A stretch of DNA of 64,000 nucleotides from Nitratireductor soli (GTDB lineage: Bacteria > Pseudomonadota > Alphaproteobacteria > Rhizobiales > Rhizobiaceae). Location of the stretch: assembly GCF_001050155.1 (NCBI RefSeq), contig NZ_LFVY01000018.1:1-64000 (forward strand). The letters are read 5' to 3'. Positions 14,282 through 46,986 of this stretch are shown one piece after another. The notes beneath the pieces are model-generated. The model was given only the letters and a program-made list of their open reading frames with translations, was not told the origin of the DNA and did not search any database. The translations under genes were made by a program, and so were the position numbers. The number at the start of each line of letters is the position of its first letter. Position 1 is the first letter of the stretch.

Positions 14282-14401
14282 TAGTGGTCTGACCGAAACA
14301 GATGGTACCCATCTGTTTCGACAAGTCAGCCCACAAGCTATTGATCTGGTGGGGCGATTTTTCCTAACAGATGGGGACCATCTGTTAGGATCGCACCACT
14401 A
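14282..14401 (+). mobile_element. 120-bp miniature inverted-repeat element, copy 1
   Basis: The element runs from TAGTGGTCTGA to CGCACCACTA; the terminal 7 bases TAGTGGT/ACCACTA are inverted. It contains two nearly perfect hairpins, at 14294-14320 (CGAAACAGATGG arms) and 14363-14389 (CCTAACAGATGG arms), joined by a 42-nt spacer. An almost identical 120-bp copy lies at 46867-46986 in the opposite orientation, and a deleted relic at 43371-43421. It has no coding capacity. The outer TA could be a duplicated target, which fits MITEs of Tc1/mariner or IS630-type transposases, but no transposase gene is in the window. Confidence 0.7.
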
Positions 14402-14427
14402 GGCACGGGACTGCCACCGCTAAGGGC

Positions 14428-15435
14428 TTATCCGCCGGTCACGCTCATATGGCGGGAAACCGAGGGGCGGTTGGTGCGCCGGTCGATGACGAAGTCATGG
14501 CCCTTGGGCTTGCGCGTGATCGCATCGTCGATGGCCGACGCCAGCAACTCATTGCCCTCGGAGGCGCGCAGCGCGGCGCGCAGGTCGGCCGAATCGTCCT
14601 GGCCGAGGCACATATAGAGCATGCCCGTGCAGGTGATGCGCACGCGGTTGCAGCTTTCGCAGAAATTATGCGTCATCGGCGTGATGAAGCCCAGCTTGCC
14701 GCCGGTTTCGCTCACTTCAACGTAGCGTGCCGGCCCGCCGGTCTTGAAGGGAATGTCGGTCAGCGTGAACTGTTGCTCGAGTTGCGCGCGCAGCAATGAC
14801 AGCGGCAGATACTGGTCGGTTCGGTCGGCGTCGATCTCGCCCATGGGCATGGTCTCGATGACGGTCATGTCCATGCCGCGGCCATGCGCCCAGCGCAGCA
14901 TTTCGGGAATTTCGTCCTCGTTGAAGCCTTTCAGCGCCACCGCATTGAGCTTGACGTGCAGGCCGGCGGCTTCGGCGGCGTCGATGCCGCGCATCACCTT
15001 GTCGAGATTGCCCCAGCGCGTGATGGCGCGGAATTTTTCCGCATCGAGCGTGTCGATCGACACGTTGATGCGGCGGACGCCGCAATCGGCGAGTTCGGCT
15101 GCGAAGCGTTCCAGCTGCGAACCGTTGCTGGTCAGCGTCAGCTCCTGCAGCGCTCCCGATTTCAGGTGGCGGGAAAGCTGGCGCACCAGATGCATGATGT
15201 TCTTGCGCACCAGCGGCTCGCCGCCGGTCAGCCGCAGCCGCCGGACGCCTTTTTCAATGAAGACCGTGCACAGGCGGTCGAGCTCTTCGAGGCTCAACAG
15301 GTCGCGCTTGGGCAGGAAGGTCATGTCTTCCGCCATGCAGTAGACACAGCGAAAATCGCAGCGATCGGTCACCGACACGCGCAAATAGTCGATGGCGCGG
15401 CCAAACGGGTCGATCATGTTGCTGTGCTGCGTCAT
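14428..15435 (-). CDS. moaA: GTP 3',8-cyclase MoaA (molybdenum cofactor step 1)
   Basis: 335 residues. The radical-SAM cluster motif is [11 protein letters not shown] near 26-36 and the second 4Fe-4S cluster that binds GTP uses C-x2-C with a distant Cys ([20 protein letters not shown] near 258-277). The chain ends in Gly-Gly, which the family requires. It converts GTP to 3',8-cyclo-7,8-dihydro-GTP, which MoaC turns into cPMP. moaC is not in the window. The 241-nt region downstream holds the 120-bp miniature element. The divergent DUF971 gene starts 181 nt away. Confidence 0.97.
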
Positions 15436-15616
15436 CGAGGCTTGCTTCCGCTTGCGGTCTCCGGCTGGACCTGCTGCATACTATGTCGTTCGTTTGGGCC
15501 GGCAATTCAAGCACGGCAAGCTAGCATCACGCCGCGCTGTTGGGCAATCGGTCCAGACCGGGGTTTTCTCCGGGGCAAAAGCTGAATAGTGCTGTGGGCG
15601 AAAGGCGGTGCCACTC

Positions 15617-15988
15617 ATGAACCCATCCTCCAATGTAAAGCCACCGAAGGAACTGCGTATTTCGAAAGACCGCATGACGATGACCGTGCTGTTCGCCGCA
15701 ATGGAGCCCGCCGCGCTCTCGGCCGAAATGCTGCGCGTTCTGTCGCCTTCGGCGGAAGTGCAGGGGCATTCGCCCGACCAGCGCGTCACCGTGCCTGGCA
15801 AGAAAAGCGTCAGCATCGCGCGCGTCGATCCCGTCGGCAATTATGCGGTGCGCGTCGTTTTCAGCGATGGGCACCAGAGCGGCATCTTCACCTGGCCCTA
15901 CCTTCATGAACTTGTCATCGAAAAGGACAAGAAATGGCAGGGCTATCTGGATGAATTGCAGGAAAAGGGATTGAGCCGTGGCGACTGA
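15617..15988 (+). CDS. DUF971 (gamma-butyrobetaine hydroxylase-like N-terminal domain) protein
   Basis: 123 residues from the ATG at 15617, which has AGGCGG eight nt ahead; a GTG at 15608 is an alternative. The DUF971 domain covers about 12-105: PKELRISKDRMTMTVLF, LSAEMLRVLSPSAEVQGH, and a C-terminal block with VRVVFSDGHQSGIFTWPYLHEL, the most conserved part of the family. Such stand-alone domains occur near Fe-S and cofactor genes but their biochemical role is not settled. The stop overlaps the following PPOX gene by 11 nt. Confidence 0.87.
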   Translation: MNPSSNVKPPKELRISKDRMTMTVLFAAMEPAALSAEMLRVLSPSAEVQGHSPDQRVTVPGKKSVSIARVDPVGNYAVRVVFSDGHQSGIFTWPYLHELVIEKDKKWQGYLDELQEKGLSRGD

Positions 15989-16607
15989 CGACGGCAGTCA
16001 CATCATCGCCTCGCTCGAGGCGCTGGAAGCGCTCTACGGCGAACCGGGCGAAGCGTCGCTGGTCAAGGTGACGGAGCGGGTGATACCGGAATATGCGGCG
16101 CTGATCGCGGCGTCGCCCTTCGCCGCCCTGGCAACGGTCGGACCGGAGGGCATCGATTGCTCGCCGCGCGGCGACCAGCCGGGTTTTGTCCGCATCCATG
16201 ATGAGCGGACGCTGATGATGCCAGACCGGCGGGGCAACAACAGGACGGATTCGCTGCGCAACATCGTCCGTGACGCCCGCGCGGCCTTCCTGTTCCTGAT
16301 CCCCGGATCGGGCACGACGCTCAGGGTCAATGGCAGGGCGCATCTGACGGTCGACCCGGAACTGTGCGCTTCGTTTGCCGTGGCAGGAGCTCAGCCGCGC
16401 TCGGTGATCGTGCTGTCGATTGAAGAGGTCTATTTCCAGTGTGCCCGCGCCATCGTCCGCTCCGATCTGTGGAACGCCGAAAAGCATGCCGATGCGAAGC
16501 AATTGCCGACGCCTGGCAAGATCCTGGCGGCGACCAGCCGGCAGGCGATCGACGGCGCGGCCTATGACGGCGAATGGCCGGAGCGCGCCGCCAGAACCAT
16601 GTGGTGA
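15978..16607 (+). CDS. Pyridoxamine 5'-phosphate oxidase-like FMN-binding protein
   Basis: 209 residues with the split-barrel fold of the MSMEG_1061/DR2398-type PPOX group: FAALATVGPEGIDCSPRGDQPGF near 49-71, the FMN-contacting MPDRRGNNRTDSLRNI near 81-96, and FLIPGSGTTLRVNGRA near 113-128. These proteins bind FMN (or F420 in some groups) and reduce unknown substrates; they are not PdxH itself. The start overlaps the DUF971 gene by 11 nt, so the two are coupled. It converges on the VOC gene with a gap of 13 nt. Confidence 0.88.
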   Translation: MATDDGSHIIASLEALEALYGEPGEASLVKVTERVIPEYAALIAASPFAALATVGPEGIDCSPRGDQPGFVRIHDERTLMMPDRRGNNRTDSLRNIVRDARAAFLFLIPGSGTTLRVNGRAHLTVDPELCASFAVAGAQPRSVIVLSIEEVYFQCARAIVRSDLWNAEKHADAKQLPTPGKILAATSRQAIDGAAYDGEWPERAARTMW

Positions 16608-16620
16608 AACCTGCCGGTGT

Positions 16621-16971
16621 TCAACGGTGGGAGAGGATGTTGACCAGCTTGCCGAATGGATCGCGCACATAGAATCGACGCACGCCCCAGGGTTCGTCCG
16701 CCGGACCATACTCGATATCGATTCCCGCCGCGACGAATTTTTCCAGCGCTGCATCGACGTCGTCGACCTCGATCGACAGGTCGGGCACCGGCGTTCCCGA
16801 GCCGCCTTCCGTGGCAAAGCTGATCTGCACGGTCATTTGGGCCGCGCTGCCGTAGGTGGCGATCCAGCCGAGATCCATAAGCAGATCGAGGCCGAGCAGG
16901 TCGCCGTAAAAGCGCCGCGCGGCCTCGATGTCGGTGGCCTGCACGTTGCTGACGATCCGCTTGACGTTCAT
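16621..16971 (-). CDS. VOC-family (glyoxalase/bleomycin-resistance-like) protein
   Basis: 116 residues from the ATG at 16971, behind a strong GGAGGA site. One VOC domain is seen: VSNVQATDIEAARRFYGDLL at the start and a C-terminal GVRRFYVRDPFGKLVNIL, the usual end motif of the beta-alpha-beta-beta-beta repeat. Candidate metal residues are few (E67-like, H115), so it may be a non-catalytic binder. The long open frame running on to 17631 is a shadow of the upstream MFS gene. It follows that MFS gene by 20 nt on the same strand and is probably in its operon. Confidence 0.87.
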   Translation of the reverse strand: MNVKRIVSNVQATDIEAARRFYGDLLGLDLLMDLGWIATYGSAAQMTVQISFATEGGSGTPVPDLSIEVDDVDAALEKFVAAGIDIEYGPADEPWGVRRFYVRDPFGKLVNILSHR

Positions 16972-16991
16972 GGTTTTCCTCCGCCTGTCGA

Positions 16992-18236
16992 TCAACCGGC
17001 CTTTTTCAGGTTGGGCAGGAATACGGTCAAGAGGCCGAGCACCGGCAGGAAGGAACAGGCGCGATAAACATACTCGATGCCCTTCACGTCCGCCACCACG
17101 CCGAGCACCGCAGCGCCGATGCCGCCGAGCCCGAAGGCGAAGCCGAAAAACATGCCGGCGACCATGCCGACGCGGCCGGGCAGCAACTCCTGGCCATAGA
17201 CGATGATCTGCGGAAAGGCTGAGGCCATGATCAGGCCGATCGCCACCGTCAACACCGGTGTCCAGAAGAGATCGGCGTAGGGCAGGGCGAGGGTGAAGGG
17301 CAGGACGCCGAGGATGGAGAACCAGATCACCGTCTTTGAGCCGACGCGGTCGCCGATCAGGCCGCCGAGTATCGTTCCTGCCGCCACTGCGCCAAGGAAG
17401 ACGAACAGCAGCACTTGCGAATGCTGAACCGAAACGCCGAATTTCTCGATGAGATAGAACGTGTAGTAGCTGGCGATGCCGGCCATGTAGACGTTCTTGG
17501 CAAAAACCAGCGCAATGAGGATGGCAAGCGATACCGCAACCTTTCGGCGCGGCAGGGTGAGCGTCCTGGCGACGGCGGGACGCGAGGCGGTGCGGATGCG
17601 GTACTGGCTGTACCAGCGGCTGACGCGCCACAGGACGATCATGCCGACCAGTGCTGCTAGCGAGAACCAGCCGACACTGCCCTGACCGCGCGGCACGACG
17701 ATGAAGGCGGCCAGCAACGGCCCGATGGCGGTCCCGACATTGCCGCCGACCTGGAACAGGGCCTGGGCCATGCCGTAGCGGCCGCCGGAAGCCAGCCGCG
17801 CGACGCGCGAGGATTCGGGATGGAAGATCGCCGAACCGAGGCCGACGAACATGGCGCCGATGAGCAGCATGGGATAATTGGCCGCCATTGCCAGAAGCAG
17901 CAGCCCGACCAGGGTGGAGCCCATGCCGACCGGCAGCGAATAGGGCATCGGCTTCTTGTCGGTGACCAGGCCGATGGCCGGCTGCAACAGGGAGGCCGTC
18001 ACCTGGAAAGCCATGGTCAAGAGACCGATCTGCCAGAAATCCAGTCCGTAATCGCTCTTCAGCATCGGATAGATGGCTGCCAGCATCGACTGCATGATGT
18101 CGTTCAGCATATGGCCGAAGCTGACGGCGAGAAGCACCGCATAGGCGGTCTTTTCAGCGATTGCCGAATTCTGGGATGCCGGAATCTGGCTGGCGGTGGT
18201 GTCGGTCAAGGGAGTGCTCCGTCGCATTGCCGCCAA
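16992..18236 (-). CDS. MFS transporter of the fosmidomycin-resistance (Fsr) type
   Basis: 414 residues, 12 predicted TM helices with a central cytoplasmic loop (about 205-230, rich in Arg). Features of Fsr-like proteins are FGHMLNDIMQSMLAAIYPML in TM1, PAIGLVTDKKPMPYSLPVGM in the A motif and GSAIFHPESSRVARLASGGR near 140-159. Relatives export fosmidomycin or other drugs by proton antiport. It is divergent from the AraC-type regulator at 18326, 89 nt away, which may control it, and the VOC gene follows it. Substrate not determinable. Confidence 0.9.
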   Translation of the reverse strand: MAAMRRSTPLTDTTASQIPASQNSAIAEKTAYAVLLAVSFGHMLNDIMQSMLAAIYPMLKSDYGLDFWQIGLLTMAFQVTASLLQPAIGLVTDKKPMPYSLPVGMGSTLVGLLLLAMAANYPMLLIGAMFVGLGSAIFHPESSRVARLASGGRYGMAQALFQVGGNVGTAIGPLLAAFIVVPRGQGSVGWFSLAALVGMIVLWRVSRWYSQYRIRTASRPAVARTLTLPRRKVAVSLAILIALVFAKNVYMAGIASYYTFYLIEKFGVSVQHSQVLLFVFLGAVAAGTILGGLIGDRVGSKTVIWFSILGVLPFTLALPYADLFWTPVLTVAIGLIMASAFPQIIVYGQELLPGRVGMVAGMFFGFAFGLGGIGAAVLGVVADVKGIEYVYRACSFLPVLGLLTVFLPNLKKAG

Positions 18237-18325
18237 GTCTCAGCAGCACAGGCGCTTATACGCGGGTTGCCAATGACCTTCCTTGGTGATTTGGTCTAGT
18301 TTCTTTGCAACTGGGCCAAATCGTG

Positions 18326-19174
18326 ATGAAGGAATTCCAGCCGGAAGCGGTGCGCTCGTCGCGCGAGATGGGACAGGTGGACGTGCGCCGCCGGGCCTGG
18401 CTCGAGGAGGCGGACGGCGATGTGGTGGTCTGGCAAAGCGTTTATCCGTACGGGTTTCAGGTAGCGCCGCATCAGCACAGCCGCTCGCAGCTCCTGCATG
18501 CGCGGTCCGGCGTCGTCCTGGTGAAGACCGTTTTCGGCCGCTGGATGGTGCCGGCGGGCCACGCGATCTGGATTCCAGCGCATGTCGAGCATGCGGTCGA
18601 CATGCTGGGCGGGGTGCGGATGCAATCGGCGTATGTCTTGCCGGGGGCGATCGAAGGCCTGCCCGAGACCCTGCGTGTCGTCGGCATGACCGATTTGATG
18701 CGCAGTCTTCTGGACGAGGCGGTTCCGCTGCCGCATGAGGCGCAGCCTTCGGGCCGCAGCGGTCTGCTGCACAGCCTGATCCTGCACGAGGTCCCGCGGC
18801 TGCGCGAAATGCCGCTCGGCCTGCCTTTCCCCGCCGATCCACGGCTGGCGGGATTGTGCCTGCGTTTTCTCGAAGCGCCGTCGAGCCACGTCACCATCGA
18901 TGCCTGGGCGGAGGCGATCGGCATGAGCCGGCGCAGTTTTACGCGCAAATTCCAGCAGGAAACGGGGATCAGCCTGTCGTTGTGGCGCCAGCAGGCCAGC
19001 CTGTTTGCCGCGCTGCCGCGCCTGACAGGCGGCGAATCGGTCACCAATGTGGCGCTCGATCTGGGCTATGAGAGCGTGGCGGCCTTCACCACCATGTTCA
19101 AGCGCATGCTGGGCGCCTCGCCGCGCGCCTATCTGCGTGCCGCGCCGGTCAATCCTCCGCCAGCGCCTCGCTGA
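18326..19174 (+). CDS. AraC-family transcriptional regulator
   Basis: 282 residues from the ATG at 18326; GTG 18323 and TTG 18305 are in frame. An N-terminal cupin (about 25-100) has HQHSRSQLLHARSGVV and MVPAGHAIWIPAHVEHAV, which resembles metal/ligand-binding AraC cupins. The C-terminal domain has two HTH units: TIDAWAEAIGMSRRSFTRKF and SVTNVALDLGYESVAAFTTMFKRMLGASP. It is divergent from the Fsr-type exporter and likely regulates it. The last 26 nt overlap the convergent MarR gene. Confidence 0.92.
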   Translation: MKEFQPEAVRSSREMGQVDVRRRAWLEEADGDVVVWQSVYPYGFQVAPHQHSRSQLLHARSGVVLVKTVFGRWMVPAGHAIWIPAHVEHAVDMLGGVRMQSAYVLPGAIEGLPETLRVVGMTDLMRSLLDEAVPLPHEAQPSGRSGLLHSLILHEVPRLREMPLGLPFPADPRLAGLCLRFLEAPSSHVTIDAWAEAIGMSRRSFTRKFQQETGISLSLWRQQASLFAALPRLTGGESVTNVALDLGYESVAAFTTMFKRMLGASPRAYLRAAPVNPPPAPR

Positions 19175-19601
19175 TGCGGCGCATCTGCTCGCCCATGGCC
19201 TCGCACTGCGCCGGCGTCGACTGGGCCAGCACACGGTCGATCAGGTCGGTGTAGACAGCCAGCGCTTTCATCAGGCGGGACTCGCCTTCCGGCGTCAGAT
19301 AGAGGCGCAGCACGCGTTTGTCGGTCGCATCGCCTTCGCGTCGGACGAGCCCCTGCGTCTCCATCTGCGGCAGGAGCATGGTGATGTTCGAGCGCCCGAC
19401 CAGAAGGCGGCGCGCCAGATCGTGCTGCGACTGGCCCGGATGACGATAGAGGTTCATCAGCATATCGAGCTGGGCGAGTTTCAGCCCAAGCGGCTCCAAC
19501 CCCCTGCTCAGCGCCCGTACAATGGCCTTCTCGGCACGGGCGACGGCAATCCACGTGCGAAAGCGCGGATTGTCCCAGGGGAGGTCTTGTTTTTTGTTCA
19601 T
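19149..19601 (-). CDS. MarR-family transcriptional regulator
   Basis: 150 residues from the ATG at 19601; an upstream in-frame ATG at 19622 adds seven residues that nearly repeat the start (MNKVSSS then MNKKQ). The winged HTH spans about 45-115: LKLAQLDMLMNLYRHPGQSQHDLA, VGRSNITMLLPQMETQGLV and RREGDATDKRVLRLYLTPEG, the wing with the conserved D-x-R. It should be a dimeric repressor. Two GTTCA-N4-TGAAC palindromes lie over and next to the start, 21 bp apart, and the divergent hydrolase gene starts at 19650, so autoregulation and control of the hydrolase are likely. The 3' end overlaps the AraC gene by 26 nt. Confidence 0.9.
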   Translation of the reverse strand: MNKKQDLPWDNPRFRTWIAVARAEKAIVRALSRGLEPLGLKLAQLDMLMNLYRHPGQSQHDLARRLLVGRSNITMLLPQMETQGLVRREGDATDKRVLRLYLTPEGESRLMKALAVYTDLIDRVLAQSTPAQCEAMGEQMRRISEALAED

Positions 19602-19631
19602 GCTTGAACTAACTTTGTTCATCGTTGAACA
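19595..19631. promoter_or_regulatory. Tandem palindromic operator, likely MarR sites
   Basis: Two inverted repeats are present: TGTTCATGCTTGAACT (19595-19610; GTTCA/TGAAC exact) and TGTTCATCGTTGAACA (19616-19631; TGTTCA/TGAACA exact). Their matching bases are offset by 21 bp, two turns of the helix, so dimers would bind on the same DNA face. They lie in the divergent region between marR and the hydrolase. Confidence 0.6.
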
Positions 19632-19649
19632 TTATTGCGGAACGTCGGC

Positions 19650-20606
19650 ATGGACACCCTCAGCTTGCGGATCATACGCAGCCTTTTTGGCACAATCGAA
19701 CATGTCGCGCCAAGACTTGCCGGACGCTTTGCATTCGAGTTGTTCTGTCGGACACCAGATCCGCTGCGGCAGTCGGCCAAGGAGCGGCGCGTGCTCGCCC
19801 AGGCCGACGCCTTCATGAAACGGGCGCGCCGGCATCGGCTGACGACTGCCTATGGCGATTTCACGGCTTATGAATTCACCAACTGGGGCGCGCGGCGCGA
19901 TGGACCGGCAGTGCTCGTTCTGCATGGCTGGCGCTCGCGCACCGAGCATATGCGACCTGTGATAGAAGCGCTCCTGGCGCGCGGCTTCCGCGTCGTCGCC
20001 GTGGACCTGCCGGGGCATGGAAGGGCGACGGGACGCAAGCTGCACATGCCGAACGCGGTTGCGGCCGTGCACGCGGCGGCGCTGTGGCTCGGGCCCTTCG
20101 ATACGGCCGTCGGCCACTCCTTCGGCGGCGCCGTGGCGCTCAACGCGGCGACCGGTTCCGTGCGGCAGGTTCCGCCGATCGGTCTGCGCCGGCTGGTGAT
20201 GATTGCCTCGCCCAACTCCCTGCCGCGGTTGTTCTGCGAGTTCGGCGCCGCCGTCGGCCTTGGCCCGCGCACGCAAGCGGCGCTCGAAGGCATGGTGCAG
20301 AGATTGGCCGGCACCCCGCTGGCGGCATTCGAGGGCGCGCTGCAGTTGAAGGCTTTCGCCGCGCCGACCTTGATCATTCATGCGCCCGAGGACAAGGAAG
20401 TGCCGGCGGATGATGCGGAGGCCATGGCAGCCGCGGGCGATCATGTTTCTCTGGCCTGGGCGCCGGGCCTCGGCCACCGGCGCATTCTGGGCGATGCAGC
20501 GGTTGCCGCACGGGCAGCGGAATTCGCCGCCAGCCGTCCGGAACGCCCGCTGACCGGCGCGATCGGCGACAAATCAGATCCGTTAAGGCTTCATTCACCA
20601 AGCTGA
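19650..20606 (+). CDS. Alpha/beta hydrolase
   Basis: 318 residues from the ATG at 19650; a TTG at 19635 is possible. About 85 residues precede the core fold: VLVLHGWRSRTEHM (oxyanion region), VVAVDLPGHGRATG, then the nucleophile elbow GHSFGG with the catalytic Ser. The acid is probably the Asp/Glu in APTLIIHAPEDKEVPADDA, and the His lies in APGLGHRRILGD, as in the family. The substrate is unknown. The gene is divergent from marR across the palindromic operator, which suggests induction by the compound MarR senses. Confidence 0.88.
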   Translation: MDTLSLRIIRSLFGTIEHVAPRLAGRFAFELFCRTPDPLRQSAKERRVLAQADAFMKRARRHRLTTAYGDFTAYEFTNWGARRDGPAVLVLHGWRSRTEHMRPVIEALLARGFRVVAVDLPGHGRATGRKLHMPNAVAAVHAAALWLGPFDTAVGHSFGGAVALNAATGSVRQVPPIGLRRLVMIASPNSLPRLFCEFGAAVGLGPRTQAALEGMVQRLAGTPLAAFEGALQLKAFAAPTLIIHAPEDKEVPADDAEAMAAAGDHVSLAWAPGLGHRRILGDAAVAARAAEFAASRPERPLTGAIGDKSDPLRLHSPS

Positions 20607-20815
20607 AACCGATCGCGCGTTTCAAGACAATTTTATCGATCGTCCGGCGACCGATCGGTTGTGAAGTGTTATCCTTGTGGCGATTCATCAGGCTGGCGTC
20701 GTTCAAGCACAACTCAGACCGTGCCGGAGCGTCGCTGATCGCCGGGGCAGCGCGCATGCATAAGCAGCGTTCCGGAGAGACGATATGAGCTGGCAGATTC
20801 GGGTGGGGATGATCG

Positions 20816-22705
20816 ATGATTTTGTTTTCTTTTCAAAAGGCTGGCCTTGCCTGCGCCACCGTTGCCTTACTCGCTGGCGGCGCGTCGCAAGCGCAGGCAG
20901 ACAATCTGTTCGACATGCTGTTCGGCGGTGGCAACCGCGCCACGAGCAATGCACGTGTCGAGCCGCAGCGTGGCGTGGTGCCGGCGGAACCGGTTCGGCG
21001 TAAATCACCGCGTGCTCCGGCGCCGAAGATTGCCGCGCCGTCCTATTACACCTACAGGCCCGCCGAACCTGTGCATGTGGATTTCTCGCGCATCGCGCCG
21101 CCGGCGCTGGAATCTGCGTTCGAGCCGAGGCTCGACGGCGCAGCGTTTCGCGAGGCGCTGCCGAAGCTTGCCGGTTTCGAACTGTTTGCCGAGAAGGGCA
21201 TCGCCGAGGCGCTGACCGACTACTATTCGAAGAATCCGGATTTCCTCTGGGTGTCCGGCTATCATGCCAACAAGCGCGCCGAGCAGGCGCTGCGCGTTCT
21301 GGCCGAGGCCGGCCAGTTCGGCCTGTCGGAGGCGGACTATACGGTCGGCGTGCCGAGCGCCGATTTCCGGTACGACCAGATCGCCGAGCGGCAAAAGGAA
21401 CTGATCCGCTTTGAGATGATTCTGTCGGCGCGCGTCCTGCGTTATGTGCGCGATGCCCATGGGGGGCGTGTCGATCCCAACAAATTGTCGGGCTATCACG
21501 ATTTTCCCGTGAAGCCGCTCGACCTGGTGCAAAGCCTCGGTTTCATGGCGCGCGCCTCGGATGTCGCCATCTATCTGAATCAGCAGCACCCGCAGAACAG
21601 CGATTATCGTGCACTGCGGGCCGAACTCGAAACGTTGCGGGCGGCTGCCGAGCGGGAGATCGTCGTCGATCCGAAAACCTTCGTGAGGCCGGGCGGCAGC
21701 AATCCGGAATTCGCCAAGCTGCTGAAGATCATCGAGCGCGACGGAGATGCGGATCTTCTGGCGGAATACGGACCGCTTCTGAAAAGCCATGCAGACAGCG
21801 CGCTCTATGCCGATGAATTGGTGCCACTCATCAAGGCCACGCAAGAACAGCATGGCTTGAAGCCCGACGGCGTCATCGGCCCGCGCACGGTCAGGGCGAT
21901 AGCCGGCGAATCAAAGGCGGCGCGCATCGAGAAGGTGCTGCTCGCGCTGGAGCGGTTGCGCTGGCATCCTTCGGATATGGGTGAGACGCGCGTGGTCATC
22001 AACGCGGCTTCGTACATGGTCGATTTCTTCGACAAGGGAAGCCTCCGGCTTTCGATGCGCACGGTGGTCGGCAGCCCCTCTAACCAGACCAGCTTCTTCC
22101 ATGACACGCTGGAAACGGTGGAGTTCAATCCCTATTGGGGCGTGCCGCGCTCGATCCTGGTCAATGAGATGCTGCCGAAGCTGCTGCGCGATTCGAGTTA
22201 TCTCGACCGCAATGGCTATGAAGTAGTCAATGGGAGCGGCCGGCAGGTCTCCTCGACCGCCGTCAATTGGGGCCAGTATGGCAGCAATATTCCCTTCAAC
22301 GTGCGGCAGAAACCTGGTCCGGGCAATTCGCTCGGCGAGCTGAAGATCCTGTTTCCGAACCGGCACGCCATCTACATGCATGACACGCCGTCGAAAAGCC
22401 TGTTCCAGCGCGACACGCGCGCCTTCAGCCATGGCTGTGTGCGCCTGGCTGATCCACGGGCGATGGCGGCGGCCGTTCTCGACATTCCTGTCGAGGAGGT
22501 GGCGGCCAGCATCAATCGCGGCGGCGGGCAGCCGACGCGGCGCAAGATCGAGCGCGATATCCCGGTCTATGTCGCCTATTTCACTGCCTGGCCCGATGCG
22601 GAGGCGGATGGCAAGATCGCCTATCACGGCGACGTCTACGGCCGCGACGAGCGGCTGAAAATCGCTCTGGAGAAGGTTGCCGACACGCGCGCGCCGAGCA
22701 GCTGA
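20816..22705 (+). CDS. L,D-transpeptidase (YcbB/LdtD-like), periplasmic
   Basis: 629 residues. A signal peptide (about 1-29, CATVALLAGGASQAQA) precedes a linker, a scaffold domain, a peptidoglycan-binding region with KPDGVIGPRTVRAIAGE near 345-361, and the YkuD catalytic domain near 395-560. The active-site block is YMHDTPSKSLFQRDTRAFS then HGCVRLADP, with the nucleophilic Cys in SHGCVRL. These enzymes form 3-3 meso-DAP cross-links and attach proteins to peptidoglycan; rhizobia use many of them in polar growth. GGTGGGG lies before the ATG. A hairpin follows the stop, ahead of the convergent trkH. Confidence 0.92.
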   Translation: MILFSFQKAGLACATVALLAGGASQAQADNLFDMLFGGGNRATSNARVEPQRGVVPAEPVRRKSPRAPAPKIAAPSYYTYRPAEPVHVDFSRIAPPALESAFEPRLDGAAFREALPKLAGFELFAEKGIAEALTDYYSKNPDFLWVSGYHANKRAEQALRVLAEAGQFGLSEADYTVGVPSADFRYDQIAERQKELIRFEMILSARVLRYVRDAHGGRVDPNKLSGYHDFPVKPLDLVQSLGFMARASDVAIYLNQQHPQNSDYRALRAELETLRAAAEREIVVDPKTFVRPGGSNPEFAKLLKIIERDGDADLLAEYGPLLKSHADSALYADELVPLIKATQEQHGLKPDGVIGPRTVRAIAGESKAARIEKVLLALERLRWHPSDMGETRVVINAASYMVDFFDKGSLRLSMRTVVGSPSNQTSFFHDTLETVEFNPYWGVPRSILVNEMLPKLLRDSSYLDRNGYEVVNGSGRQVSSTAVNWGQYGSNIPFNVRQKPGPGNSLGELKILFPNRHAIYMHDTPSKSLFQRDTRAFSHGCVRLADPRAMAAAVLDIPVEEVAASINRGGGQPTRRKIERDIPVYVAYFTAWPDAEADGKIAYHGDVYGRDERLKIALEKVADTRAPSS

Positions 22706-22719
22706 CGCATCGATTTTCC

Positions 22720-22740
22720 GAAGGCTCCCGGGTCGGGAGC
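22720..22740. terminator. Hairpin between convergent L,D-transpeptidase and trkH genes
   Basis: AGGCTCCC and GGGAGCCT pair perfectly around a 5-nt loop in the 48-nt gap between two convergent stop codons. There is only a modest A/T run nearby, so it may work as a bidirectional terminator or as a 3' stabilising stem. Confidence 0.55.
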
Positions 22741-22753
22741 CTGCTCAGCGCCG

Positions 22754-24208: not shown

Positions 24209-24294
24209 TGGATGGCTCTCACCAATTGACGGTCAGTCCGTGTGCAGGAGCCAGCCGAAAGGAAGCCCCCGCGTCACCACCTGATTCTCGCGAA

Positions 24295-24369
24295 TGGTGG
24301 GCGCGGCAGGGATTGAACCTGCGACCCCACCCGTGTGAAGGGTGTGCTCTCCCGCTGAGCTACGCGCCC
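24295..24369 (-). tRNA. tRNA-Val (anticodon CAC)
   Basis: On the minus strand the gene begins GGGCGCG and closes with CGCGCCC plus discriminator A and an encoded CCA (24295-24297). D-arm TAGCTCAGCGGGAGAGC, anticodon stem CACCC/GGGTG with loop TTCACAC (anticodon at 24335-24337), and T-arm GCAGGTTCAATCCCTGC all fold correctly. It reads GUG codons. It lies between trkH and gph; no integrase or attachment duplication is seen beside it. Confidence 0.97.
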
Positions 24370-24440
24370 GCTCGCAAACCATCATCGAGCGAGCCGCGAT
24401 ATAAGGGGCGGCGCGGGGCCGAGTCAAGGTGGGTATCGGG

Positions 24441-24511
24441 GCGCTCAATTTCTTTGTTTTTCCGCGTTCATGCGGACGTCAGGTGATTCCACCTGACTGC
24501 AAAATGCCCTA
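24441..24511 (+). repeat. Mosaic repeat, module B1 with remnant of A
   Basis: The copy has the end of module A (GCGCTC) and then B1: a CCGC-x-GCGG hairpin followed by the CAGGTG-ATTC-CACCTG hairpin and a TGCAAAATGCCCTA end. Its last three bases (24509-24511) are the complement of the TAG stop codon of gph. Confidence 0.75.
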
Positions 24512-36460: not shown

Positions 36461-36468
36461 AATGCATC

Positions 36469-38271: not shown

Positions 38272-38280
38272 TGTGAAATG

Positions 38281-38307
38281 GGCGGGCCGTCAATCTGGCG
38301 GCCCGCC
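38281..38307 (+). terminator. Hairpin after ABC exporter gene
   Basis: GGCGGGCCG pairs with CGGCCCGCC around a 9-nt loop, 9 nt after the TGA. Only TTG follows, so termination may be weak, and gltX could receive some read-through. Confidence 0.55.
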
Positions 38308-38342
38308 TTGCCAAGGAGAAGGGCTTCGGCTACGCCGCAATC

Positions 38343-39716
38343 ATGACAGTCACCGTTCGTTTCGCGCCGTCCCCGACCGGCCACATCCATATCGGCAATG
38401 CGCGCACCGCGCTGTTCAACTGGCTTTATGCGAAAAAGCATGGCGGCCGCTTCATCCTGCGTTTTGACGATACGGACAGGGAGCGCTCGAAAACCGCCTA
38501 TGCGGAAGGCATCGCGCGCGACCTGACCTGGCTCGGCATCCGGCCCGACGACACGGTTTCGCAGTCGGCGCGCTTCGGCAAATACGACGCGGCGGCCCAG
38601 ACGCTGAGGGCGGCCGGGCTGCTGTATGCGTGCTACGAGACGCCGGAGGAACTGGAGCGGCGGCGCAAGATCCGCCTGACGCGCCGCCTGCCACCGGTCT
38701 ATGGGCGGGAGGCGCTGAAGCTTTCGGACGAGGAAAAGGCAGCTTTCGAAGCCGAGGGCCGAAAGCCGCATTGGCGCTTCCTGCTGCCCAACTTCGCCGA
38801 GACGCCATTCGAGCCGCAGCGCACGGAGGTGCATTGGGACGATGTGGTGCGCGGACCGCAGACCGTCGACCTGGCGTCGATGTCGGACCCGGTGCTGATC
38901 CGCGCCGACGGCACCTATCTCTATACGCTGCCCTCGGTGGTGGACGACATCGACCTCGGTGTCAGCCATGTCATTCGCGGTGACGACCATGTCACCAACA
39001 CCGGCGCGCAGATCTCGCTGTTCAGGGCGCTGGGCGCCGAGCCACCGGCCTTCGGCCACCACAATCTGCTGACCACGGTTTCCGGCGAGGGGCTCTCCAA
39101 GCGGACGGGCGCGCTGTCCATCGCCAGCCTGCGCGACGACGGCATCGAGCCGATGGCAGTTGCCTCGCTGGCCGTGCTGATCGGCACTTCGGAGAACGTT
39201 TCGCCGGTGGCGACGATGCCGGATCTCGCCGACCGCTTCGAGCCGACGGCCACCTCCAAATCTGCGGCAAAATTCGATCCGGCCGAACTGGCCGCGCTCA
39301 GCCGTCACCTGATCCAGGCAATGCCGTTTTCAGAAGTCGCCGAGCGATTGGCCGGGCTTGGCATCGCCGGCGACAAGGCAGAGGCATTCTGGCTGGCGGT
39401 GCGCGGCAATCTCGATCGGCTGGAAGACGCCGCCGCCTGGTGGCGGATCGTCATGGACGGGCCCGATCCGGAAGGCAGGGTTTCACCTGAGGACCAGGAA
39501 TTCGTCAGCGAAGCGATGCGGCATCTGCCACCCGAACCCTGGGACGGCGAGACATGGCGCGTGTGGACCGATGCGGTGAAGGCCGCCACGGGCCGCAAGG
39601 GGCGGGCGCTGTTCATGCCGCTCCGGCTCGCGCTTACTGGACGCGATTCTGGACCGGAGCTCGCAGGTCTATTGCCTCTTCTGGGTCGGGAAGAAACTCT
39701 GGCCCGACAATCCTGA
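38343..39716 (+). CDS. gltX: Glutamyl-tRNA synthetase (GltX)
   Basis: 457 residues. The class I signatures are [20 protein letters not shown] (HIGH as HIGN, 8-27), DDTDRERS near 42-49, and [10 protein letters not shown] for KMSKS near 252-261. Alphaproteobacteria often carry two GluRS copies, one of which may charge tRNA-Gln for the amidotransferase route; which type this is cannot be set from here. The 3' end overlaps the convergent DUF2865 gene by 83 nt, an unusually long overlap. Confidence 0.93.
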
Positions 39717-40746
39717 CGCGGCGTGGCTCGCTCGGCACAGAGGGCGCCGGCACGGCTTCCGGTTCCGCTTTGAGCGTTTCGGCGTTTACGTCGATCGCCT
39801 TGGCCAGCATCTCGGGATCGGGACGTGGGGTCGGCCTGTAGAAGCTTCCGCTGTCTGTATCGCCGACGGAAGCCGTTGCCTCTTCCGTCACGGGTGCGGC
39901 TGAACCGCCGATTGCCGGGCTTCCGGCGGCCGGCGGTTCTCCGGCGATCACCGAAAAATTCCTGGTCGGCTGGCATCCGCAGACTTTCTTGCTGACGCCA
40001 TCGCGCCGGTAGCTGAACGCCTTCGGCAGGTCGCGATAGGGCGTACCGCTCGCAACGGACACCATGTCCTCCGATTCCTCATTCAGCACGTCATGGGCGT
40101 AAAGCGCGACCTCGGCGCCTGGACAGCGTGCCTGGCAGGTTTTCTCGTCGCGGCCGAACATGTCCTTCGACACGGAGAAGGAGATCGGAAAATAATATCC
40201 ATCGCATGTGCGCACGCACATGGTCTGGTAGACGTTGCCGGAGCGCCGCAGGGGCTTGTCGGCTTCTCGCGCCTGACGCGCTGCTCTGGCCTTGGCCGGT
40301 GCCGAGACAGCCTTAACGGCGGGCTCGTCGTTGCAGCGGTTGGCGCGCATCGAGGCCAGGATGCGGGCGCGATCGCGGCCTGCGCTTGAGCGGCCCTGCC
40401 CATCCAATTGCATCTGCAGCTTCCAGATATTGTTCTCCATGCTCGACGCTGATTTTCTGAGCGTGGCGCACTGCGCGATGTTGTTGCCGAAAATGCCGAA
40501 GCCGCACTGCGCCTGCCGGATCTGCGCGCGGACCTTGCCAAGCTGGGCATTCTGCTTGGCAATGGCGTTCTGCAACTTTCGGGCCTGGGAATTCGAACCC
40601 CGACCTGTCGCAACCTTGAGCTCGGCGGCGAGATTGCGGCAGACGCTGGACTGGCCAAAGGCTTCGTCGGCCGAGACGACCAGCCCGGCGCTCAAACCGA
40701 GAACCAGACACAATGCACGAAAGACCGTTCCGCCGCCCGTACCCAT
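39634..40746 (-). CDS. DUF2865 secreted Cys-rich protein
   Basis: 370 residues. A signal peptide (about 1-31, ending ADEAFGQ) is followed by a helical N-terminal half with coiled-coil ([21 protein letters not shown]), then [16 protein letters not shown] near 175-190, the hallmark of DUF2865, with [14 protein letters not shown] and VCGCQPTR. The Cys are expected to pair in the periplasm. The tail (~260-370) is Pro/Ala-rich and low-complexity. The start region lies 269 nt from maeB's end. It overlaps gltX antisense by 83 nt. Confidence 0.9.
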
Positions 40747-41015
40747 ATTGCCCCCAGAACGCGCGATCCCGCTAAAGACGGCACGTCGATAAAATCTTCG
40801 ATAGAAATGCCAAGCGTCAATTCAACCATATCGCGAATTGAATTTCCACCCTAAGGCGTGCAGGTTAAATCGTGGTTAGAAAAGTATGGTAAATTTCCCG
40901 GGCCGGGTGCGATTGTTTCGCGGCGAAGGAAACTGCTGATGCAGCTCATCGACTCAATGCAAGTGCGGCCGCTTGCTCCTCACGGAAACCGGCGGCCGCT
41001 TTGTGCCGAGCCGGG

Positions 41016-43331
<2,316 letters not shown>

Positions 43332-43370
43332 GCGAACGGCTCCCCCATCATGGCTACTCGGCGGCCGCCC

Positions 43371-43421
43371 TGGTGGTCTGATCGAAACGGATGGGCATCA
43401 TCTGTCAGGATCGCACCATCT
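43371..43421 (+). mobile_element. Internally deleted relic of the 120-bp miniature element
   Basis: TGGTGGTCTGATCGAAAC and the end AGGATCGCACCATCT match both ends of the elements at 14282 and 46867, but the central 70 nt are missing so that the left arm of the first hairpin joins the right arm of the second. It lies 40 nt upstream of maeB. Confidence 0.65.
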
Positions 43422-43630
43422 GGGCGGTCAGGGGGTAGTGATTAGGCTTTCGCAGGGCCTTTTTCCAGCACGGAATGGCCGGTTGCGTCATTCCGCTCGG
43501 AAATTTCGGGCCGTCACGCCGCGCCGGTCCGCCAATGCCCGGCTTTGCCTCATCGTGAGGCGGGCCGTCACACGGCTGTGACATGAATCGGGCCATAGAG
43601 TGCGCGATTTAGGCAGGCTTGGACGTGATC

Positions 43631-44458
43631 ATGGACGGCGCCGGACACCGCAGCTTTCGGGCACTCTTCATCTCCGACATCCACCTTGGATCAAAACCGG
43701 CCAAGGCGGAGTTCCTGATCGACTTTCTGCGCCATCACGATGCGGAGAAAATCTATCTGGTCGGCGATATCGTCGACGGCTGGCGGCTGCGGCGTTCCTG
43801 GCACTGGCCGGAAAGCCACAACGACGTGGTGCAGAAATTGCTGCGCAAGGCGCGCAAGGGTGCCGAGATCGTCTATATCGCCGGCAATCACGATGAATTT
43901 CTGCGCGCTTTCCAGGGGGTGCATTTCGGCGGCATCGTGGTCGCCGACCGGGCCATCCATCAGGCGGCCGACGGGCGCACATTCCTCGTCATTCATGGCG
44001 ACCAGTTCGACCAGGTGGTGCACAATGTGCGCTGGCTCGCCTATCTCGGCGACAAGGCCTATGACTTCGCCATCGTCGTCAACCGGGTGATCGCCCGCGT
44101 GCGACGCCTGTTCGGCCGGCCCTACTGGTCGTTCTCCTCCTGGGCCAAGATCAAGGTGAAGAAAGCCGTCAAGTTCATCAGCTCGTTCCAGGACGTGCTG
44201 GCGCAGGAGGCACAGCGCGCCGAGGTCGACGGGGTGATCTGCGGCCACATCCATCACGCGGCGATCGAGGACATCCGCGGCGTCAGTTACATGAACACCG
44301 GCGATTGGGTCGAGAGCTGCACGGCGCTGGCGGAGAATTTCGACGGAACGTTCGAGATCATCACCTGGGCGCAGGTCCTGAATGCCGAACCGGTGGTGGC
44401 GGAAGCCAAGCCGCGCCTGGTCGCCGCTTTCCAGCGCGAACGGGAAGAAGCCGCTTGA
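43631..44458 (+). CDS. UDP-2,3-diacylglucosamine diphosphatase-like metallophosphoesterase (LpxH-like)
   Basis: 275 residues from the ATG at 43631; a TTG at 43619 is also in frame. A calcineurin-like dimetal site is visible: FISDIHLGS (D and H), VGDIVDGW, GNHDE, IHGDQFD and GHIHH near 200-205. This pattern matches LpxH-type enzymes that cut UDP-diacylglucosamine to lipid X in lipid A synthesis. A later basic stretch (KIKVKKAVKFISSF) may bind membranes. A second LpxH-like gene could exist elsewhere. It is followed by a mosaic repeat. Confidence 0.85.
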   Translation: MDGAGHRSFRALFISDIHLGSKPAKAEFLIDFLRHHDAEKIYLVGDIVDGWRLRRSWHWPESHNDVVQKLLRKARKGAEIVYIAGNHDEFLRAFQGVHFGGIVVADRAIHQAADGRTFLVIHGDQFDQVVHNVRWLAYLGDKAYDFAIVVNRVIARVRRLFGRPYWSFSSWAKIKVKKAVKFISSFQDVLAQEAQRAEVDGVICGHIHHAAIEDIRGVSYMNTGDWVESCTALAENFDGTFEIITWAQVLNAEPVVAEAKPRLVAAFQREREEAA

Positions 44459-44469
44459 GAAACACGATT

Positions 44470-44574
44470 AGAGCGCCGTGCGTCCATTCGGGCGCACAAA
44501 GGACGCTCCAATTCTCTAAATCCACACATCGTGCTTTCCGAAAATCGGTTCCGATTTTCGGGCCGATGCTGTAG
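44470..44574 (+). repeat. Mosaic repeat, modules A + B2
   Basis: Module A (44470-44508) is followed by a different partner, B2 (44509-44574), with the palindromic CCGAAAATCGGTTCCGATTTTCGG hairpin in 44538-44561 and an ATGCTGTAG end. It lies between convergent genes. The copy at 55177 is B2 plus A in reverse. Confidence 0.75.
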
Positions 44575-44579
44575 GTCCG

Positions 44580-45563
44580 TCAGCCCCAAAGCTGCGGGTG
44601 GGGCGGCGAGACCAGCGAGCCGGAATAGCTGAGGCCGTGCGGCCGGTCGCGGGCCAGAAGCAGCGGCCCGTCGAGATCGACGAAGTCGGCGCCTTGCGCC
44701 AGCAGGACCGCCGGCGCCATGGCCAGCGACGTGCCGACCATGCAGCCGACCATCACGCCGAAACCCATGTCGCGTGCCCGGTCGCGCAATTCGAGGGCCG
44801 CGGTGAGGCCGCCGGTCTTGTCGAGCTTGATGTTGACGAAATCATAGAGGCCGGCGATCTCAGCCAGATTGTCGGCCGTATGCAGGCTTTCATCGGCGCA
44901 GATGGGCACGGGGTGCGGGATCGTGCGCAGGATTTCGTCCTTGCCGGCCGGCAGCGGCTGCTCGATCAGGGCGACGTGAAACTCGGCGGCCGCAAGCATG
45001 TTTTCGCGGATGTTCTGCTCGGTCCATCCTTCATTGGCGTCGAGAATGAGGCGGCTTTCAGGGGCCGCGCCGGCCACGGCGTGGATGCGCGCCACGTCGT
45101 TGTCGCTGCCCAGCTTGACCTTCAGCAGGGGACGGGCGGCATGGGCGCGCGCCTGGGCGGCCATCTCCTCGGGTGCCGCCAGCGAAATCGTGTAGGCGGT
45201 GGACACCGGGCGCGGGGGAATGCTGCAGGCGAGGACGGCCGCGCGATTGCCCGACAGCTTGGCTTCCAGGTCCCACAGGGCGCAGTCGATCGCATTGCGC
45301 GCAGCACCCGCCGCCATATGCGTCAACAGATCGGCGCGGCCCATGCCGTTGACCAGGTCCTGGCGCGCAGCCTCGATCTCTTCGACGACGCTCTCCACCG
45401 TCTCGCCATAGCGTGGGTAGGGAACACACTCGCCGTGACCCCGGGTCTCGCCCTGTCGCAGCGTGCAGGTCACCACCCGCGCTTCGGTGCGCGAGCCGCG
45501 CGATATGGTGAAAACACCGGCGATGGGAAAGCTTTCGACCTCGGTGACCAGTTCGCGTGTCAT
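44580..45563 (-). CDS. Dipeptide epimerase-like enolase-superfamily enzyme (DgcA/YcjG-type)
   Basis: 327 residues. The capping domain (about 1-105) precedes the barrel with catalytic KVKLG (Lys of K-x-K) near 148-152, metal ligands ILDANEGW near 171-178, EQPLP near 196-200 and ADESLHT near 220-226, and a second base NIKLDKTGGL near 242-251. This matches L-Ala-D/L-Glu epimerase-like or N-acyl-amino acid racemase-like enzymes; which substrate is used is not clear. It could recycle murein peptides. The divergent Mla-type operon begins 43 nt upstream. Confidence 0.87.
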   Translation of the reverse strand: MTRELVTEVESFPIAGVFTISRGSRTEARVVTCTLRQGETRGHGECVPYPRYGETVESVVEEIEAARQDLVNGMGRADLLTHMAAGAARNAIDCALWDLEAKLSGNRAAVLACSIPPRPVSTAYTISLAAPEEMAAQARAHAARPLLKVKLGSDNDVARIHAVAGAAPESRLILDANEGWTEQNIRENMLAAAEFHVALIEQPLPAGKDEILRTIPHPVPICADESLHTADNLAEIAGLYDFVNIKLDKTGGLTAALELRDRARDMGFGVMVGCMVGTSLAMAPAVLLAQGADFVDLDGPLLLARDRPHGLSYSGSLVSPPHPQLWG

Positions 45564-45606
45564 TTCCGCCCTTCTTTTGCATCATGTCCAATTATCGGAG
45601 GATAAC

Positions 45607-46869
45607 ATGCCTTATAGGGCGGCCGACCAAGCCGACAAACGGTTCCCTTTGGGCCTGCTCCACACTAATGATGGTGCCATGTTGACCAATTCACAGGGCG
45701 AAGCAAGCGGCGCGCCGCACCGGGCAGGAGAGAACGGCGAACCGCGCGTCGAGGTGCGCGAGGACGGCGGGGCGATCGCTTGCCGGCTGAGCGGCGCCTG
45801 GAACACACGCACCGTCGCCCATGTGGATGCGCAGATGCGCGCGCTGCAGGCGCGGGGCGATGTCCAGCGCATCGAGCTCGACCTGTCGGGGGTCACCAGC
45901 CTGGATACGGCAGGTGCCTGGCTGATCGAAAGGCTGATCCATGCGCATGAGGCGCGCGGCGCGGCGGTAGCGGTGTCGGGTCGATCCGAGGCGGCGACCA
46001 TCCTGCTGGCCGCCGTGCGCGACGCCGCCGCGCAGGACGGCGAACCCAAAACGCGTCCGCGCCGGGCCTGGATATTGAACCTGCTCGAACGCATCGGCCG
46101 CGCCATGTATGAGGCGCGCGACGACCTCGTCTATGGTGCGAACATCCTTGGTGCGACCATCGGCGGCGCGCAGATGAAGCTTGGCCGGGCGCACGCGGTC
46201 AATCCGGCGGCGATCGTCAACCAGATCGACCGAATGGGCGTCGGCGCGGTGCCGATCATCGTTCTGATGTCGGCCATTGTCGGGGCCATCATTGCCCAGC
46301 AGGGCGCTTTTCAGCTGCGCTATTTCGGCGCTGAAATCTTCGTCGTCGATCTGGTCGGCATCCTGATCCTGCGCGAACTCGGTGTGCTGATGACGGCGAT
46401 CATGATCGCTGGCCGTTCGGGCAGCGCCATCACGGCGGAAATCGGCTCGATGAAGATGCGCGAGGAGGTCGACGCGCTGACGGTCATCGGCCTCAATCCT
46501 GTAGGCGTTCTGGTTTTCCCGCGCCTGGTCGCTCTCATGATCGCCGTGCCCTGCCTGACCATCGTCGCCAATTTCGCAGCTCTCGGCGGGGCAATGCTGA
46601 TCACCTGGCTCTATTCGGGGATTCCGCCAACCGCCTTTATCGACCGGCTGCGCGATTCCATCGATCTCTCGACGATCTTCGCCGGGCTGATCAAGGCGCC
46701 TTTCATGGCGCTGATCGTCGGCATCATCGCCTCGATCGAGGGCATGAAGGTCGGCGGCAGCGCCGAATCGCTCGGCAATCACGTTACTGCTTCGGTGGTG
46801 AAGGCGATCTTCATCGTCATTGTCGTCGACGGCATGTTCGCGATCTTCTATGCAGCAATCGATTTCTAG
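45607..46869 (+). CDS. MlaE-family permease with N-terminal STAS domain
   Basis: 420 residues from the ATG at 45607, behind GGAGGATAAC. The N-terminal part (about 48-135) looks like an STAS domain (IELDLSGVTSLDTAGAWLIERL), which in the family is a separate MlaB protein; here it is fused. The MlaE core has MSAIVGAIIAQQGAFQLRYFGA, REEVDALTVIGLNPV near 291-306 and several TM helices. It is the inner-membrane channel for phospholipid movement with MlaF and MlaD. The stop TAG (46867-46869) is the first three bases of the 120-bp miniature element. Confidence 0.92.
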   Translation: MPYRAADQADKRFPLGLLHTNDGAMLTNSQGEASGAPHRAGENGEPRVEVREDGGAIACRLSGAWNTRTVAHVDAQMRALQARGDVQRIELDLSGVTSLDTAGAWLIERLIHAHEARGAAVAVSGRSEAATILLAAVRDAAAQDGEPKTRPRRAWILNLLERIGRAMYEARDDLVYGANILGATIGGAQMKLGRAHAVNPAAIVNQIDRMGVGAVPIIVLMSAIVGAIIAQQGAFQLRYFGAEIFVVDLVGILILRELGVLMTAIMIAGRSGSAITAEIGSMKMREEVDALTVIGLNPVGVLVFPRLVALMIAVPCLTIVANFAALGGAMLITWLYSGIPPTAFIDRLRDSIDLSTIFAGLIKAPFMALIVGIIASIEGMKVGGSAESLGNHVTASVVKAIFIVIVVDGMFAIFYAAIDF

Positions 46870-46986
46870 TGGCGCGATCCCAACAGATGCTACCCATCTG
46901 TTGGGCAAGATCGCCCCACCAGACCAATAGTTTGTGGGCTGACTTTTCGAAACAGATGGGTAGCATCTGTTTCGGTCAGACCACCA
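46867..46986 (-). mobile_element. 120-bp miniature inverted-repeat element, copy 2
   Basis: The reverse complement matches the copy at 14282-14401 along its entire length: two hairpins (CAACAGATG-type and GAAACAGATG-type arms) with the same spacer. The first three bases TAG form the stop codon of the permease gene. It fills the gap ahead of the ATPase gene (12 nt left), so both hairpins are transcribed inside the operon. Confidence 0.72.

What the first reader, a model, noticed from the sequence alone, without database searches (positions are those of the whole stretch)
14282..46986. A 120-bp miniature element with two hairpins in opposite orientations, plus an internally deleted relic
Copies at 14282-14401 and 46867-46986 are the same length, match base for base except scattered changes when one is reverse-complemented, and each has inverted TAGTGGT/ACCACTA-like ends and two nearly perfect 27-nt hairpins (14294-14320 and 14363-14389). 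A third site (43371-43421) keeps only the two ends. This is the form of a MITE moved by a transposase in trans; no transposase is in the window.
Basis: partly seen in the sequence, partly recalled or inferred. Interest (0 to 1): 0.7.

Follow-up and report, generated by a model that had tools for sequence, protein, structure and literature searches.

The report
Double-hairpin miniature jumping DNA element
This is a gene-less, 116-base jumping DNA made of two back-to-back hairpins, present in dozens of copies in a Nitratireductor bacterium and patchily in its relatives, which inserts at the rare sequence CTAG and, having no gene, must borrow its moving enzyme from elsewhere.

Summary
In detail: window copies A and B match at 108 of 120 positions. 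Site C is one of about 20 short forms of 44-46 bp. The genome (taken as Nitratireductor by contig matches of congeners) holds 43 near-full-length copies. Site B is empty, with CTAG or CTAA, in 9 of 9 congeners. Two other sites and one sister-species site are also empty in the other genome.

Flank statistics and one dated site put the ends at GTGG...CCAC with a 2-bp TA duplication, usually in CTAG.

The element is patchy: 10 of 297 family genomes, 5 of 109 genera, own included. Its stems are kept by paired changes without strand preference.

The anatomy resembles a REPIN, but no Y1/RAYT transposase was found in the own genome and the target is duplicated. I read it as a MITE moved in trans by a TA/CTAG-targeting DDE transposase (IS630 or IS5/IS427 type). 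No autonomous partner was found, so that step is inferred. It is a new family of a known kind.

The parts
14284..14399 (+). long-form element, copy A (116 bp between TA duplications)
   Evidence: 108/120 identical to copy B; ends inferred from flanks at 58 sites; lies between moaA-like and EamA-like genes
14282..14283 (.). TA target-site duplication, left, inside CTAG 14281-14284
14400..14401 (.). TA target-site duplication, right, inside CTAG 14399-14402
14294..14320 (+). hairpin 1 of copy A (12-bp stem, 3-nt loop), extended outward by TGG.CTGAC/GTCAG.CCA across a 4-nt bulge
14363..14389 (+). hairpin 2 of copy A (12-bp stem, 3-nt loop), extended outward by TGG.GCGAT/ATCGC.CCA across a 4-nt bulge
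46869..46984 (-). long-form element, copy B (116 bp)
   Evidence: orthologous site empty in 9 of 9 congeners G001-G009
46866..46869 (+). CTAG target of copy B; TAG 46867-46869 is the stop codon of the mlaE-like ORF 45463-46869
   Evidence: congeners have CTAG (4) or CTAA (5) here
43373..43418 (+). short-form element (left arm of hairpin 1 fused to right arm of hairpin 2), copy C; right boundary base damaged
   Evidence: lies between a malic-enzyme gene (41016-43331, -) and a phosphoesterase gene (43619-44458, +)

Best explanation
A non-autonomous miniature transposable element (MITE), 116 bp, with no gene. Each half is a bulged imperfect hairpin of about 50 nt, and the two halves lie inverted around a conserved spacer. 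It inserts mostly at CTAG (also CTAA, GTAG, ATAG, CTAC) with duplication of the central TA. It is inferred to be moved in trans by a DDE transposase with TA/CTAG target specificity, of the IS630 (Tc1/mariner) or IS5/IS427 (IS711-like) type. Recombination or slippage between the two identical palindromic cores (ACAGATGG..CCATCTGT) inside a long copy would give the 45-bp short form. Where the CTAG is a gene's stop, as at site B, insertion leaves a TAG stop in place. Shown: copies, empty sites, TA duplication by flank statistics plus one dated site, patchy spread, paired changes in the stems. Inferred: the transposase family and the origin of the short form.
For: Copies: 43 near-full-length matches, 86-100% identical, in the own genome; 79 left-end matches with 0 for the control pattern. 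Flanks: in 64 tabulated rows the left 4-mer is CTAG in 26 and the right in 24, although CTAG occurs only 14 times in the 64-kb window against 211 expected from base composition. TA duplication: in 58 rows (6 damaged or doubled rows dropped) the inner dinucleotide is equal on both sides in 30, shuffled mean 18.8, 0 of 20,000 shuffles as high. Where the outer left base is not C (8 rows) the inner right base is C in 8 of 8; where the outer right base is not G (8 rows) the inner left base is G in 5 of 8. Site L030 is CTAA in the sister species and CTAG...CCAA when filled, so the left G came with the element. Empty sites: B in 9 of 9 congeners; L030 in the sister; at L038/L269 the two species carry copies at different sites about 50 bp apart, the own genome showing an uninterrupted CTAG where the sister's copy sits, and the sister no copy where the own one sits. 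Patchiness: 10 of 297 family genomes, own included; the exact end in 2 of 397 order genomes, namely the own one and a genome with a lone 17-bp sequence (the sample held no other genome of the genus). Stems: 97.1% of cells paired, 11 of 40 pairs with two-sided changes, 74 such cells against 24.4 in shuffles. In G667, 15 of 15 hits read have C after TGACC and 13 of these 15 show the matching TTTGG; the other two are short forms lacking that arm. GT and AC mismatches are 39 and 57, no excess of GU on the strand read. IS630- and IS5/IS427-type elements at CTAG occur in these genomes. Published: IS630-type ISY100 duplicates TA, and a cited title names CTAG for IS630 (PMC2170065, passages and reference list); IS711 duplicates TA in YTAR and is associated with palindromic Bru-RS repeats (PMC2266754, passages).
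Against: No autonomous element with these ends was found; IS630 was searched in only four genomes. G534 has at least 12 copies (the scoring cap) but no DUF4096 (IS5/IS427) match at E <= 0.001, and neither has G645, which speaks against that family as its present helper. The ends are no closer than shuffles to nine other IS or MITE ends, though this test is weak: the element's own two ends give only about 0.06. Only 30 of 58 rows keep equal inner dinucleotides. Spacer and stems are unusually conserved for a MITE interior (mean column identity 87%). Site A has no base-exact empty site because its intergenic region does not align in the three congeners compared. Insertion at gene stops is not enriched: 17 of 64 rows (one site read twice) end an open frame of 100 or more codons, about the 27% expected for any stop triplet read on two strands.
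Confidence: 0.8

Rival explanations
1. A REPIN: two inverted REP hairpins copied by a RAYT (HUH/Y1) transposase through single-stranded intermediates, the short forms being REP singlets.
For: Anatomy: two inverted imperfect hairpins, spacer, compensatory stem changes, high copy number, solo forms, occasional tandem runs; these match the REPIN description in PMC3116915 (passages). GTAG REPs providing TAG stops is described in PMC3733652 (passages).
Against: No Y1_Tnp (PF01797) match in the own genome at E <= 0.1 while 8 of 14 control genomes ring; TA duplication and CTAG empty sites; no GTAG tag; right arms of short forms no more decayed than those of long forms, unlike REP singlets in PMC3116915. 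RAYTs were not searched in the other carriers.
Confidence: 0.07
2. A fixed cis-acting RNA or regulatory element (terminator, mRNA stabiliser, sRNA) kept in place by selection rather than a mobile element.
For: Very stable hairpins, two-sided changes in stems, intergenic or gene-end positions of the three window sites.
Against: Empty sites and patchy distribution; the only Rfam match in the window at gathering scores is a tRNA; GT and AC mismatches show no GU excess on the strand read. Secondary effects on transcripts are not excluded.
Confidence: 0.06
3. The stems stay paired not by selection but by palindrome correction (template switching during replication) and recent amplification from few masters. 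This concerns the hairpins only and is compatible with the main reading.
For: Near-symmetric mismatches; high overall identity; same-arm palindromes at L203 and L048 look like arm conversion.
Against: Does not explain mobility. The persisting 4-nt bulges and mismatched pairs in both halves argue against complete correction.
Confidence: 0.35

Closest known systems
Bru-RS1/Bru-RS2 palindromic repeats of Brucella and their IS711 association
   Same: Dispersed palindromic repeats of a related alphaproteobacterium (about 100 bp, recalled); an associated IS duplicates TA in YTAR (PMC2266754, passages)
RIME elements of Rhizobium/Sinorhizobium
   Same: Intergenic repeats of rhizobia, dozens per genome, unknown function (PMC2573895, passages); two large palindromes (recalled)
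   Different: Original paper not held; no sequence comparison made; mobility and target of RIMEs not compared
REPINs with RAYT
   Same: Two inverted hairpins, compensatory changes, solo derivatives (PMC3116915, passages)
   Different: No Y1 transposase found in the own genome, TA duplication, CTAG target, no GTAG tag
MITEPsy1 of Pseudomonas syringae
   Same: 100-nt MITE that inserts at and duplicates CTAG or YTAA (PMC3189936, passages)
   Different: Different ends; a parent IS (ISPsy2) is proposed there, none found here
IS630 / ISY100 (Tc1/mariner) elements
   Same: TA duplication, CTAG preference of IS630 (PMC2170065, passages and a cited title); an IS630-type copy at CTAG in this genome
   Different: Ends differ; this element has no transposase gene

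Membership tests
MITE | short, no coding capacity, terminal inverted repeats | tested here: met
   116 bp; ends TGGTCTGACC.../TGGTGCGATCC...; the 120-bp unit is 73% identical to its own reverse complement
MITE | multiple dispersed copies | tested here: met
   43 near-full-length in 5.1 Mb
MITE | target-site duplication and empty sites | tested here: met
   TA duplication by statistics and site L030; empty sites
MITE | ends shared with an autonomous IS that supplies the transposase | tested here: inconclusive
   none found with the exact 14-mer end in own (10 of 28 places traced), G009, G667, G534 or beside half elements; genomes are drafts
REPIN | inverted pair of imperfect hairpins with spacer | tested here: met
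REPIN | cognate RAYT (Y1/HUH) in the genome | tested here: not met
   own genome only
REPIN | GTAG tag, no target duplication (the second is recalled) | tested here: not met
   flanks CTAG with TA duplication
IS630-derived MITE | TA duplication in CTAG | tested here: met
   but IS5/IS427-type elements with recognised ends here also sit at CTAG
IS630-derived MITE | ends like an IS630 element | tested here: not met
   no better than shuffles against three IS630-type ends; a weak test
IS5/IS427-derived MITE | IS5/IS427 transposase present in carriers | tested here: inconclusive
   DUF4096 found in 5 of 6 and 4 of 6 genomes searched; absent in G534 and G645, which carry the element
Bru-RS / RIME | sequence homology | not tested

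The most novel reading that the evidence does not exclude
The two bulged hairpins are themselves what the mobilising enzyme reads: a hybrid kind of mobile repeat with REPIN-like structure-recognised hairpins but DDE-like TA duplication at CTAG, able to move in both a double-hairpin (116 bp) and a single-hairpin (about 47 bp) form, with no surviving autonomous relative.
Probability: 0.12. Interest if true: 0.65.

Novelty: new member of a known kind. Interest (0 to 1): 0.4.

Why it matters
It adds a well-delimited element family to Nitratireductor, Hoeflea, Chelativorans and Xaviernesmea, with boundaries, target rule and empty sites defined. Its REPIN-like inside combined with a DDE-like target duplication makes a clean test of whether stem pairing is needed for transposition or is just palindrome correction. 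It also warns that double-hairpin repeats in rhizobial relatives should not be filed as REPINs by shape alone.

Tried and rejected
RAYT/REPIN: PF01797 search negative in the own genome. A 4-bp CTAG duplication: rejected in favour of TA, because outer bases change independently on the two sides and site L030 was CTAA. IS630 as partner: L119, L120 and the fragment in L122 have other ends; L126 matches only at its N-terminus and reads to me as an integrase-type IS (my reading, no family search). IS5/IS427 (DUF4096): 6 matches in the genus set and 15 in other carriers; paired ends were recognised for 4 of 6 and 4 of 15 (where only YTAR-flanked ends were sought), none matching. Half elements as IS ends: of 28 loci given, left ends without a nearby right end were listed; a right-type end further on was seen at L059 (a separate short copy), L087 (both halves around an IalB-family gene) and L204 (a chance match with 6 mismatches); 30 of the 54 open frames listed were scanned and none is a transposase. 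An odd end at C1:346723 (L159) lies beside a 348-aa ORF that reads as a membrane protein, not an IS. Insertion preferring gene stops: not enriched. Plasmid, phage and viral collections: no match. Rfam: only a tRNA. Literature: searches listed no paper that I recognised as describing this element; only eight papers were looked into, as passages. Short forms as decayed relics: not supported (right arms 0.902 against 0.910 mean identity; left arms 0.963 against 0.916, but the left arm was used to find short forms, so that number is biased).
Full report
Observation. Copies A (14282-14401) and B (46867-46986, reverse) are 120 nt and match at 108 positions. Each carries two 27-nt hairpins, extended outward across a 4-nt bulge, so that each half folds as a bulged hairpin of about 50 nt. 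Site C (43371-43421) fuses the outer left arm to the outer right arm.

Copies in the genome. The window is contig C10 of an unnamed 5.1-Mb draft. A search with copy A gives 43 near-full-length matches of 86-100% identity, including four copies in a row at C58:61650-62116 whose units are separated by one shared 4-mer. A search for the left 21 bases with up to 3 mismatches gives 79 sites and none for the control pattern. Reading the sites shows long forms, about 20 short forms of 44-46 bp between TGG and CCA, and several half or degraded elements.

Boundaries and target. In 64 tabulated rows (43 long, 21 short, one short site read twice) the 4-mers beside TGG...CCA are most often CTAG (26 left, 24 right). 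CTAG occurs 14 times in the window against 211 expected. After dropping 6 damaged or doubled rows, the inner dinucleotides agree on both sides in 30 of 58 against 18.8 by shuffling. The bases outside them vary while the inner C and G stay (8 of 8 and 5 of 8), which fits an element GTGG...CCAC with a TA duplication rather than a 4-bp duplication. Site L030 is CTAA in the sister species and CTAG...CCAA when filled, the same conclusion.

Stop codons. Of 11 CTAGs in the window that are not beside an element, 9 end an open frame of at least 100 codons, against 27% expected for any stop triplet read on both strands. But only 17 of the 64 site rows do, which is the background rate, so I claim no preference for stops. 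Site B is a confirmed case: its CTAG is the stop of an mlaE-like gene, and the stop is kept after insertion.

Empty and shared sites. Site B is empty in 9 of 9 congeners, with CTAG in 4 and CTAA in 5. At L038/L269 the own genome and ZSWI3 carry copies at two sites about 50 bp apart and each lacks the other's copy; the own genome keeps a plain CTAG where ZSWI3 has its copy. For copy A, the three congener loci aligned lack the element, but the intergenic DNA is too different to see the exact empty site. The copy at C5:76569 (L044) is present at the same place in ZSWI3 (L193), so not all copies are recent.

Distribution. Of 60 genomes searched by blastn, the own one and three congeners (G009, G007, G004) match. 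Of 397 genomes of the order, in which the own one was the only member of its genus, 2 have the exact 14-base end: the own one, and a genome with one isolated CTAG-TGGTCTGAC-CTAG. The search used strict filters, and G004 is not among the ten, whether unsampled or missed. A 20-base scan of named genome contigs (records near the window may be left out) gave 53 stretches, all in Nitratireductor, Hoeflea, Chelativorans intermedius and Xaviernesmea rhizosphaerae. Nothing was found in plasmid, phage or viral collections.

Hairpins. On the 73-copy alignment 97.1% of pair cells are standard, 11 of 40 pairs show two-sided changes, and there are 74 such cells against 24.4 in shuffles (relatedness of copies weakens this control, but sliding the partners gives at most 6 such cells). 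Two pairs of stem 2 and one of stem 1 supply most of them, and that stem-1 pair also has 16 unpaired cells. The G667 copies carry GACCCAAAC...GTTTGG where most others have GACCGAAAC...GTTTCG (15 of 15 hits read on the left, 13 of those 15 with the partner). GT and AC mismatches are 39 and 57 (39 and 42 without one pair), so there is no excess of GU on the strand read. DNA-level recognition and palindrome correction are the open alternatives.

Short forms. The two hairpins share the core ACAGATGG..CCATCTGT; deletion of the 69 bp between equivalent points turns 114 into 45 bp, the observed size. Short forms in G667 carry the G667-type left arm (L265, L291), so short forms seem to arise repeatedly from local long forms. 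They keep TA on both sides as often (9 of 20) as long forms (14 of 43), so movement of short forms themselves is also possible.

Transposase. No Y1/RAYT match in the own genome. IS630-type matches lie on C23 of the own genome and in G009 and G004, none in G007. DUF4096 (IS5/IS427-type) matches were found once in the own genome (C23:299.8 kb) and in 8 of 11 other genomes searched; G534 and G645, which carry the element, have none. The eight DUF4096 loci with recognised ends all sit at CTAG, but none has ends like this element. A second MITE family in the genome, 268-270 bp with ends GGGTCAGGACC, abuts an IS630 fragment with the same end, showing that CTAG-targeting MITE and IS pairs exist here; a hybrid of the two families lies at C7:16125. 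By analogy the first family is most likely served by an IS630 or IS5/IS427 transposase; this step is inferred.

Verdict.

Noticed in passing
own genome C23:175633-175900, C53:249742-250009, C58:166906-167175 (L135, L138, L147): A second MITE family of 268-270 bp with ends CTAG-GGTCAGGACCT and internal hairpins; its end equals that of an IS630 fragment in L122.
   Followed up: partly
L140, L141, L143, L144 (own C3:216546, C5:78941, C16:23896, C44:32474); L155 (G361): Minimal CTAG-GGTCAGGAC-CTAG and CTAG-TGGTCTGAC-CTAG sequences: 9 bp of an element end between two CTAGs, possibly excision footprints.
   Followed up: no
L131/L059 (own C7:16125): Hybrid element: left end of the second MITE family joined to the right half of the 116-bp element at a CTATTRATCT microhomology, CTAG on both sides.
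   Followed up: partly
L087 734-1732 (own C33): An intact IalB-family gene (PF06776) lies between a right half and an inverted left half of the element, about 1 kb in all: a possible captured gene, or two half elements by chance.
   Followed up: partly
own C58:61650-62116 (L053): Tandem run of four long copies with a single shared CTGG between units; three units look identical in score and printed ends, suggesting tandem duplication after insertion.
   Followed up: partly
window, whole: CTAG is about 15-fold under-represented (14 against 211 expected), and 9 of 11 CTAGs not beside an element end an open frame of 100 or more codons (27% expected).
   Followed up: partly
flanks of L003, L009, L047, L062, L071, L079: Other short palindromic repeats (GTTTCATGGAAAC-type, AGCATTTTGCAGTCAGGTGGAATCA-type, GAGCGGGATGAG-type) lie next to several copies.
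   Followed up: no
flanks in the 64-row table: When the duplicated TA is changed, the base next to the element changes more often (CTGG on the left, CCAG on the right) than the outer one; the cause is unknown.
   Followed up: no
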